Shown one piece after another: positions 53,978 to 64,000 of a stretch of DNA of 64,000 nucleotides. The position numbers and the translations under genes were made by a program. Origin of the DNA: Mycobacterium sp. DL99. GTDB lineage: Bacteria > Actinomycetota > Actinomycetes > Mycobacteriales > Mycobacteriaceae. Each line of letters opens with the position of its first letter. Position 1 is the stretch's first letter. The stretch covers positions 1,269,672-1,333,671 of the forward strand of contig NZ_SJOM01000007.1 of the NCBI RefSeq assembly GCF_004762045.1, in the 5' to 3' direction. Under the pieces are notes generated by a model. That model did not search any database, was not told where the DNA came from, and saw nothing but the letters and a program-made list of their open reading frames with translations.

Positions 53978-54015
53978 TCGCCGGTGCCCTCGGGGGTTGA
54001 GGCGCCATGACGAGC

Positions 54016-54037
54016 GGCACCGAGATTTGTCGGTGCC
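54016..54037 (+). terminator. Hairpin terminator after the Mut7-C gene
   Basis: Perfect 8-bp stem GGCACCGA (54016-54023) / TCGGTGCC (54030-54037), 6-nt loop. Confidence 0.6.
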
Positions 54038-54083
54038 TGGTGCGACGATGCCCGGTTCACTCAAATGAGGACTGGAGGTTCTG

Positions 54084-54407
54084 ATGAAGACTGGTGTGTG
54101 TGGTGTGGCGGTGCTGCTGACGGTGGCGGCCCTGGCGGGGAGCCCGACGGCTGCGGCGGCGCCGTCGTGGACGATGCCAAATCTGATCGGGATGGATCTG
54201 CAGGGTGCGCAGGATGCGATTCAGTCGCTGACCCGTGGTGAGGTGTGGTTCAGCAGCTCAACCGATCTCACCGGGAAGGGCCGGGCGCAGATCAGCGATC
54301 GCAACTGGTAGGTGTGCAGTTCGACCCCGCCGCCCGGGACGAAGTTCTCTGCGTCGACCAAGATCGACTTCGGGGTGGTGCGCATCGATACCGAGGAATG
54401 TCCCTGA
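54084..54407 (+). pseudogene. PASTA-like small secreted protein, disrupted copy B (nonsense codon)
   Basis: 107 codons if the internal stop is ignored. Signal peptide (MKTGVCGVAVLLTVAALAG) then SWTMPNLIGMDLQGAQDAIQ, a PASTA-like start. TAG at 54309-54311 follows DRNW where copy A has CAG (Gln); after it the frame continues with VCSSTPPPG and FGVVRIDTEECP to TGA at 54405-54407. The truncated product would lack the second half and both late Cys. A sequencing error or readthrough cannot be excluded. Confidence 0.7.
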
Positions 54408-54499
54408 GGTAATCGGACCGGCTGTCCCGTCTGCACAGCGCCTGGTCGAAGGCCAGGTGTGGAATCCGGGCGGGGCAGCCGGGGGAACTCGGCCTGGGT

Positions 54500-54614
54500 T
54501 CACGTCTTGCAGTCCTCGACCAGCTGTGTGTCTGCGTCGATGAGCCGTTGAACAGTGTTGAGGTAGTTCACCTTTCGGATCCCGTCACTGCCATTGGATG
54601 CGCCAGGTAGCACC
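54500..54614 (-). pseudogene. 3' remnant of a duplicate of the 49789-50844 membrane protein gene
   Basis: Read on the minus strand to a TGA at 54500, the sequence encodes LPGASNGSDGIRKVNYLN then RLIDADTQLVEDCKT, closely matching the last 38 residues of the intact protein (TPGMSNGEIGIRQMSYLN, RLVDADTQLLDECRR). The 5' nine-tenths of the gene is missing. Confidence 0.75.
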
Positions 54615-54617
54615 TGC

Positions 54618-54965
54618 TTACTGTGCTGCGGTCTGATTGTGGCGATGCTGGGACGCAGCCAGACGAAGCAATTTCTCGAGCGGTGGTTGAAACGCCGAAC
54701 GTGTGTCCGGATCCAGTGTTTCGAGGTGGGTCGGTAGCTTCTCGATGATCGTCGTGACGATGATGTCGTTCGACGGCTCGCGCAAATCCATCATGAGCAC
54801 GTTGTTGTCGTGCAGCTCAACGACTTCTGATCTTTTCGCCCCTTCCGGTAGCTGCTCGGCGAGGAAATCGAACAAGAAGTGGGTCACCGACGAATTCCAT
54901 GACCAGCCATCGTCGACAAATCGGAAGTATCCGCTCATTTGCCCCCTCGGGAACTCGTTGCCCAT
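54618..54965 (-). CDS. Hypothetical 115-aa protein
   Basis: No signal peptide or membrane helix. It begins MGNEFPRGQMSGYFRF (a second in-frame Met follows at residue 10) and has mixed alpha/beta character with acidic patches (VVELHDNNVLMMDLREPSND) and a His/Gln-rich end. AT content is higher than in its neighbours, and it sits directly against a gene remnant, both hinting at recent insertion. The size resembles immunity or antitoxin proteins, but no toxin gene adjoins. Unrecognised. Confidence 0.55.
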   Translation of the reverse strand: MGNEFPRGQMSGYFRFVDDGWSWNSSVTHFLFDFLAEQLPEGAKRSEVVELHDNNVLMMDLREPSNDIIVTTIIEKLPTHLETLDPDTRSAFQPPLEKLLRLAASQHRHNQTAAQ

Positions 54966-55196
54966 AGATTAGTTCCGGTCAGCGTGGGGTGGAGTCGGTA
55001 GTTCACGAGGTCAGCCCGGGGCCCACTGCGGAATGCCACGTGAGGGTCGGCTGTGCGGATGCCGCCGAATCGGATGGGCTGGGCGCGAAGGAATTTGAAT
55101 CCGTTCCCACTCTCAATATACGGCGGGGGGTGGGGCTTGCGGCAAGGCCCCTGACGTGCTGCACAATCTTTCGATCCGTGACGAGATGGGGATGTT

Positions 55197-60896: not shown

Positions 60897-61616
60897 TCAC
60901 TGACCTTCTAGCGAATGGCGGAGAGATGCGACAAAGCGATCTATCTCCGCATCGTCTAGCGCATCAAGCAGGCGGACTCCGCTTTGGAACGTAGCCGACT
61001 TGTACAGCCCGCGGGCCCACTGCGATCGATTGGGTCCGTCGTACGCTTGGACTCTGCCAGCAAGGGCTCGGGCCAGTCGCCGATTGCGAACCAGAGCGCT
61101 TCGTTCGGTAAGGCCGACCAATTCGTCTTCTCCCAACGGACGACCGCGGTCTTCGGGCAGGTCACCTAGGATCTCTTGCCGCTGCCACGGGCGTCTCAAG
61201 GCGTTTCGGGCGGTCCCGATGAAGCGGTTGATATGGAAATCAGGAAAGCGGACTGCTGCAATATCGGGGAACACGACGAGGGTGAGGAAACTCCAAGTCC
61301 CCTCGTGCGCTGCATCTGCGGGAACAATGTTGAGCACGCCGTGGAGCGAACGCCCAAGCGCCCCATCGAATCCTGCCTTGTCCGATATGCGTTCCTGCAC
61401 GAGCCAAGATGCCATGTGCTCAAGCACAGATTGCCGTACTCCCGCTATCTCCTCCGGAGTCGCAATCCTGCCAGTTGCAACTGGAACCTTGCGCTCGTGA
61501 TCAAATCTCACCTCGTCGGCGAGCGCTGCACGGCCGCCTACCGCATATCTCGTGCGAAGTTCGTCGAAGATCGCCTCAGCGTCGCCTCGATTCAATCGCG
61601 GATAGCAGAGTTTCAT
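60897..61616 (-). CDS. DUF6339-family protein
   Basis: 239 aa from ATG 61616 (MKLCYPRLNRGDAEAIFDEL), which overlaps the upstream gene's stop (ATGA). The sequence has TWSFLTLVVFPDIAAVRFPDF followed by DR-less NRFIGTARNALRRPWQRQEIL and a helical C-terminus. This is the pattern of DUF6339 proteins, which I recall next to DNA-methyltransferase, Z1-helicase and PD-(D/E)XK genes in restriction-like islands. Biochemical role unknown. Last gene of the three-gene operon; base use is visibly more AT-rich than the flanking core genes. Confidence 0.7.
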   Translation of the reverse strand: MKLCYPRLNRGDAEAIFDELRTRYAVGGRAALADEVRFDHERKVPVATGRIATPEEIAGVRQSVLEHMASWLVQERISDKAGFDGALGRSLHGVLNIVPADAAHEGTWSFLTLVVFPDIAAVRFPDFHINRFIGTARNALRRPWQRQEILGDLPEDRGRPLGEDELVGLTERSALVRNRRLARALAGRVQAYDGPNRSQWARGLYKSATFQSGVRLLDALDDAEIDRFVASLRHSLEGQ

Positions 61617-62476
61617 GGGCCCACCCCCGCAAACAACAGTCTGTCGAACTTCAAAGGGTTTCGTGTGTATGTCTGAATGGCCTCGTGCAGCGAGCGGTTC
61701 AGGAACAACTTGCACATCGAATCGACCACTTGGCCAACGGAGTCTGCCGGAAAATCGTCATCGTCAGAGATTTCCTGCGCGCTCGTGAGCGCGACTAGAG
61801 ACCGAAGCACCTCGAGCTTGAGCCTGGCCTCGAGTTGTGGCTCAACGGGAGGTGCGAGTAGCGCACGGCCAAGTTCGTGTTCTTCGTTGACCAGGAGTCG
61901 AACAGACCCCATGAACGAATCACTCACGTCATCAAACACCGCGCTGATCGTCCAAGGTGCGTTCTCGAGATGGAGCGCCGAGAACGAAACTGCCTCGGTT
62001 GGGAATCGCGAGGCGTCACCTTCTAGCAAGATGTTGCGAGGCGGTCCCACGCAGAGCCGTGATCCGCGCCGCGACGCGGCGCGGCCCTTGGGAATGACGT
62101 CCTCAGCCAGGAGCAAAAACGCCGAAAGTTCGAGCCTTTGTGCGGCTTCGCCTGGAGGCAGCTCGATCGACAACTCCACTGTTTGGGTGTCGTCAGTCGA
62201 CAAGCGCTTCTGAGCGACGAAGCGTCGCAACATTGCCGGACAATCTGCAACTGCGACCGCCTCGATCAGATCGATCTGTTCTAAGCCTGTGGCCTCGAGA
62301 ACCGTTGAACTCGTGACTTCGACGGAGAGCCCGATGGCATCGGTCGAGGCGTAGTCCCACCCTGGAAGAAGATCTGGAAGGGGTTCGCGAAGGCCGTTCC
62401 GTTCCAGCCACCACCCACCCCACGAAACATTGCTGGAGACAAGAGATCTGTATGGCAGCAGGCGTGTCTTACTCAT
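61613..62476 (-). CDS. Unknown protein of the GHKL/DUF6339 operon
   Basis: 287 aa from ATG 62476, eight bases inside the 3' end of the GHKL gene. Mixed beta-rich N-terminus with SSNVSWGGWWLERNGLREPLP, a central beta region (VELSIELPPGEAAQRLELSAF) and a C-terminal helical part (RLKLEVLRSLVALTSAQE, LNRSLHEAIQTY). No catalytic motif, signal peptide or membrane helix seen. Its position between an ATPase and DUF6339 with overlapping reading frames says the three work together. It could be the adaptor or effector of the system. Confidence 0.6.
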   Translation of the reverse strand: MSKTRLLPYRSLVSSNVSWGGWWLERNGLREPLPDLLPGWDYASTDAIGLSVEVTSSTVLEATGLEQIDLIEAVAVADCPAMLRRFVAQKRLSTDDTQTVELSIELPPGEAAQRLELSAFLLLAEDVIPKGRAASRRGSRLCVGPPRNILLEGDASRFPTEAVSFSALHLENAPWTISAVFDDVSDSFMGSVRLLVNEEHELGRALLAPPVEPQLEARLKLEVLRSLVALTSAQEISDDDDFPADSVGQVVDSMCKLFLNRSLHEAIQTYTRNPLKFDRLLFAGVGP

Positions 62477-64000
62477 GACTTCCTTCGTCGACAATCCGGA
62501 CTGTGATGTCGATGGCAACTTCGTCACTCGAGTCGAACCAATACTCAAGCGATTGACCAGGCATGATCACCGCCGTCGCGTTACCGTCAGCGCCCTCCCA
62601 GCCGCCGTCTCGCAAGTAGTCTGGATCGATCGATCGTTCGGTGCCGCCGTCTGTCCCGATGCCAATCTCGACCTGGACGCGGGATCCGTCTGACGGGCCA
62701 CCATCTACGCGGATCGGCAGTGTCGTTCGCGTCCATCCCGGTATGCCACAGTCTGTCCAGCGGGGATCGCCTAATTGCGCCCTAGCTTTGGAGCTCCGGC
62801 TAGCACCGGCGCTTGGCTTCGAGCCGCCTGCCAGCGTCGGCGCGGAGCCGATCGACCCAGTCACTAGGCCGGCCAACATATCGCCAACTGCGGCGGCCGA
62901 GGCTGAGGACTGGCTTGGCCTAGTAGTGCTGAAAGGCTCGACGAACTTGTCTGCAGCTTCTTGGATTCGTTGGATCGCTAGCTTGACTTGGCTGCGCTGA
63001 GTCTTGTCCTGCAGTGATGCGGGGGACCAGTCGTCGTGCGCGGGTGGTTCTGATTTGGCGAATGTGGGATCTAGGTCTGACACCGGCTTGAACACGCCGG
63101 CCCATTGGAAGCCTGGCTCAGCGAGCGCCGATCGCTGTATCTGTCGGACAACCAACTCGGCACCGTTGCGCATAAGCGTGATAGCCCGGCTCGGCTCTAC
63201 TTCTGCAGCTGTGCCGCGAGGCGCGGGGTACTTCGTTAGGGCTAGATGCCCGAGGACCTCGTTGTACCGTTTGATCTCGATGACGTCCACAGCGAATAGC
63301 GAGGGTGTAGGAGTACTTCCAGCTTGGATGGCTCGCACTGTGCGTAGACACGAGACCGGGCCACAAAGGACTGGGTGGCTCGATGGATCCGGAATCGGGT
63401 AGTCAACGCCGTCGACCTGTACGCGCACGTCCATCGGGTGCATTCCGGAGTTATCGGGAAGCAGCTTCGGCCACAAGTTCCAGAGCACTGCTTCCGTTAG
63501 TACCTCTGCGTCATCTTCTGGGCCAGGCGCGCCGAGTTCGGGAGCGAGGATCAGAATGCTGGTGCCAAGCTCATCGTCCCCGAATGTTTTTGCGAAGATT
63601 TGGCTTCCAAGCTCCCGGGCGAATGGGCCTACTACCGGTTCTGGGCGTCCCTCGATTGTTCGGCCCCACCAATGTCTACCGGTGTAGCGGTATCCATCCA
63701 GCTCGAATACGTCTCCAATAGCAGACGCGATCAAGCGATCTTCCGGTCCTTTGTCCGTAGCACATCTGGACCAGACAATGATGGCGCTGACCTGGCTGAC
63801 CATGTACGCGATCGACTTACCGAATCCGTATGTCCCCCCGGATGTCGGGTCGCCCTTGGTAGCACCAATGTTAAAGATGAGGTCGATGAAGTGGGTGACG
63901 GAGTTCGGAGGGATCGCGCGATCGTTCCGAACTGGCCCGCCTAGGCCAACCGTCCCGCGGTCGGAGATTTCGACCGCCCAGACCTCGTCAGCCGTTAGCG
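62469..64000 (-). CDS. GHKL (MutL/MORC-type) ATPase, 5' end outside the window
   Basis: 509 codons are visible on the minus strand from the window edge to TAA at 62469; the start is missing. A Met at 63803 is not the start, since the frame stays open upstream with the ATP lid motifs. VEISDRGTVGLGGP is the DxGxG motif of Bergerat-fold ATPases and GGTYGFGKSIAYM is the G2 motif. The N-box lies outside. A second domain spans about 150-330 from the edge (DVRVQVDGVDYPIP), then a linker rich in Ser/Ala and a C-terminal beta-sandwich. It resembles MutL/MORC-like ATPases of restriction-type defence operons. Confidence 0.75.
   Translation of the reverse strand, partial: LTADEVWAVEISDRGTVGLGGPVRNDRAIPPNSVTHFIDLIFNIGATKGDPTSGGTYGFGKSIAYMVSQVSAIIVWSRCATDKGPEDRLIASAIGDVFELDGYRYTGRHWWGRTIEGRPEPVVGPFARELGSQIFAKTFGDDELGTSILILAPELGAPGPEDDAEVLTEAVLWNLWPKLLPDNSGMHPMDVRVQVDGVDYPIPDPSSHPVLCGPVSCLRTVRAIQAGSTPTPSLFAVDVIEIKRYNEVLGHLALTKYPAPRGTAAEVEPSRAITLMRNGAELVVRQIQRSALAEPGFQWAGVFKPVSDLDPTFAKSEPPAHDDWSPASLQDKTQRSQVKLAIQRIQEAADKFVEPFSTTRPSQSSASAAAVGDMLAGLVTGSIGSAPTLAGGSKPSAGASRSSKARAQLGDPRWTDCGIPGWTRTTLPIRVDGGPSDGSRVQVEIGIGTDGGTERSIDPDYLRDGGWEGADGNATAVIMPGQSLEYWFDSSDEVAIDITVRIVDEGSHE

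What the first reader, a model, noticed from the sequence alone, without database searches (positions are those of the whole stretch)
60897..64000. Three-gene overlapping operon with a MutL/MORC-type ATPase, an unknown protein and DUF6339: candidate phage-defence system
The sequence shows a Bergerat-fold ATPase (DRGTVGLGG and GGTYGFGKS motifs), an unrecognised 287-aa protein and a DUF6339 protein, with overlaps of 8 and 4 bp. By eye the region is more AT-rich and uses rarer codons than the flanking genes. MutL/MORC-like ATPases next to Z1 helicases, nucleases or methyltransferases are established as restriction-like modules (Iyer and Aravind's MORC analysis; MZA-type systems). The middle protein has no family I know. 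The upstream part beyond the window may hold a methyltransferase or nuclease.
Basis: partly seen in the sequence, partly recalled or inferred. Interest (0 to 1): 0.75.

Follow-up and report, generated by a model that had tools for sequence, protein, structure and literature searches.

The report
Swappable helicase-ATPase restriction cassette
A low-GC island in this bacterial chromosome carries five tightly packed genes (a helicase, a nuclease-like protein, an ATPase and two uncharacterised proteins) beside a DNA methyltransferase; together they likely form a restriction system that would destroy unmarked foreign DNA, and relatives keep the cassette (a few lack the nuclease-like gene) while they appear to exchange the methyltransferase.

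The parts
60897..61616 (-). DUF6339 protein, 239 aa, last gene of the cassette; predicted all-alpha
   Evidence: conserved positions
61613..62476 (-). MID, 287 aa, no known family; predicted Ig-like beta sandwich (strands at residues 23-197) plus C-terminal helices (213-285)
62469..64000 (-). ATP1, GHKL ATPase; the gene runs past the window edge (625-639 aa in all). The rest of the locus lies beyond 64000 and is listed with extended coordinates in the full report.
   Evidence: PADLOC PDC-M33A 1.8e-8 over residues 101-226 only

Best explanation
[not shown]
Against: No experiment on a trio-type system was found. The C5MT link is loose in L013 and L027: it lies about 9 kb away among genes of what looks like another restriction system; in L012 it belongs to a second, helicase-free set. 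In the window the C5MT is divergent from the cassette. DUF4420 is missing from 3 of 17 trio loci (L013, L027, L052) and carries an in-frame stop in L005, so it cannot be the only effector everywhere. Vsr was not found in L012 and L052. MID and DUF6339 folds gave no convincing match, so their roles are guesses. MzaB correlates with the cassette (0.63-0.86, 15-21 pairs) and C5MT correlates with Vsr only weakly (0.36, 36 pairs), so 'cassette plus one movable modification module' is too simple. The DUF6339-methyltransferase fusion is a single case.
Confidence: 0.65

Rival explanations
1. Abortive defence: the cassette senses infection and kills or arrests the cell (through DUF6339, MID or the GHKL ATPase) instead of cutting phage DNA; the methyltransferase only sets the trigger.
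For: AIPR, the protein that the trio replaces in sister loci, is named after abortive infection; DUF4420 can be missing while the trio stays (L013, L027, L052); a TIR gene lies nearby.
Against: No toxin-like family matched MID or DUF6339; a C5MT is present in 16 of 17 trio loci, though loosely in two; helicase and nuclease-like motifs are kept.
Confidence: 0.17
2. Modification-dependent (type IV-like) restriction: the cassette attacks DNA with foreign modified cytosines and the methyltransferase is an unrelated neighbour.
For: The system at the same site in congener G021 contains a GmrSD_N protein, a family known for cutting modified cytosines (recalled). The C5MT is distant in L013 and L027.
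Against: A C5MT is present in 16 of 17 trio loci and follows DUF6339 on the same strand in three; DUF6339 is fused to a C5MT domain in one genome.
Confidence: 0.08
3. DNA-repair locus: GHKL ATPases, Vsr and helicase repair mismatches at 5-methylcytosine, with no role in defence.
For: Vsr and MutL-like ATPases are present; the C5MT tail weakly resembles mismatch glycosylases (1kea, E 0.0044).
Confidence: 0.05
4. Inactive genomic relic.
For: One relative (L005, a draft assembly) has an in-frame stop in DUF4420.
Against: The genes of the window locus are open and keep the motifs examined.
Confidence: 0.05

Closest known systems
'Type I' putative defence system of PMC9523054 (Nat Commun 2022; section 11 read whole; other parts as passages)
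   Different: The text read does not name the three additional genes, and its figures and supplement could not be opened, so identity with ATP1-MID-DUF6339 is likely but unverified. The window locus adds a second GHKL (MzaB) and an HNH gene.
mzaABCDE (MZA; Gao et al. 2020, not held; known here through PMC9523054 and PADLOC models)
   Same: PADLOC MzaB, MzaC and MzaD all match
MORC/paraMORC restriction operons, third type (PMC2292703, Biol Direct 2008, parts 1-2 of 4 read)
   Same: GHKL ATPase with a helicase carrying a DThhQXuRhFG motif and an RE-fold protein; cytosine methylase and Vsr nearby
   Different: ATP1 lacks the MORC motif GhXhhpXXRhl (0 of 11) and mostly lacks the paraMORC2 ExxxH motif (3 of 11); MID and DUF6339 are not named in the parts read
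[not shown]

Membership tests
[not shown]
   PADLOC MzaC 1.9e-79
MZA (mzaABCDE) | MzaD (DUF4420) | tested here: met
   PADLOC MzaD 7.6e-18
MZA (mzaABCDE) | MzaB (MutL-like ATPase) | tested here: met
   [not shown]
MZA (mzaABCDE) | MzaE (AIPR) | tested here: not met
   No AIPR match among the twelve different proteins of the locus and its right flank scanned by Pfam and PADLOC
MZA (mzaABCDE) | MzaA (sigma factor) | tested here: not met
   No sigma factor among the same twelve proteins; PMC9523054 says mzaA is present in only a few of its Type II systems
[not shown]
Type I of PMC9523054 | three particular additional genes | not testable with these tools
   Genes are not named in the section read; figures and supplement not held. 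ATP1, MID and DUF6339 make the count right
Type I of PMC9523054 | association with DNA-repair endonucleases | tested here: met
   Vsr in the window locus and in 8 of 8 MID loci
MORC (sensu PMC2292703) | GhXhhpXXRhl motif in the S5 domain | tested here: not met
   0 of 11 ATP1 proteins
paraMORC2 | conserved ExxxH at the end of the S5 domain | tested here: not met
   Glu and His both present in 3 of 11 at the aligned place
GHKL ATPase superfamily | N box, D box and GxGK-type motifs | tested here: met
   N box (QNS) and GTYG[FY]GK in 11 of 11; DxGT.GLGG in 10 of 11, one variant
DUF6339 (PF19866) | match to the Pfam profile | tested here: met
   Precomputed PF19866.5 on the identical protein; the 19866.4 model stays below cut-off (17.7 of 23.2 bits) and does not find the window genome at E <= 0.001
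Restriction-modification system | methyltransferase that protects host DNA from the linked nuclease | not testable with these tools
   Gene linkage only (C5MT in 16 of 17 trio loci, loosely in L013 and L027)

The most novel reading that the evidence does not exclude
Probability: 0.35. Interest if true: 0.72.

Novelty: new member of a known kind. Interest (0 to 1): 0.5.

Full report

LINKAGE TO A METHYLTRANSFERASE. Of 17 distinct trio loci (own, L004-L013, L026, L027, L049, L051-L053; L050 has the contig length and scores of L009 and is counted with it), 16 have a C5MT in the DNA read; L007 ends inside MzaB at the end of its contig. In L013 and L027 the C5MT is about 9 kb away, among genes that look like another restriction system, so the close link is shown in 14; in one of these, L012, the C5MT belongs to a second set (below).

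HOST.

Noticed in passing
L049:15269-17191 (genome G277): DUF6339 fused to a C5-methyltransferase domain (Pfam 6.8e-38) that lacks the PCQ cysteine motif, followed by a complete C5MT: a possible DNA-reader fusion.
   Followed up: partly
extended window coordinates 68303-70543 (L002:7975-10215): C5 methyltransferase with a C-terminal Cys4 tail like endonuclease III/MutY; such a tail is in 9 distinct loci of those read, 7 of which also have a strong MzaB match.
   Followed up: partly
[not shown]
   Followed up: partly
L002:15184-16074 (extended window 75512-76402): TIR-domain gene of low GC (0.566) beside pnuC, PADLOC PDC-S66 3.7e-16, with no match in the fetched region of congener G021: likely a second defence islet.
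   Followed up: partly
[not shown]
   Followed up: partly
L005 (Nocardioides halotolerans): The DUF4420 reading frame holds an in-frame stop in this draft assembly; the other four cassette genes are open.
   Followed up: no
[not shown]
   Followed up: partly
window 54001-55000: A second dip in GC (0.605) with short open frames, left of the finding.
   Followed up: no
P0170 and P0176 (homologues of DUF6339): Longer DUF6339 proteins (388 aa) with a similar C-terminal extension in the alignment; P0170 has no Pfam match there.
   Followed up: no
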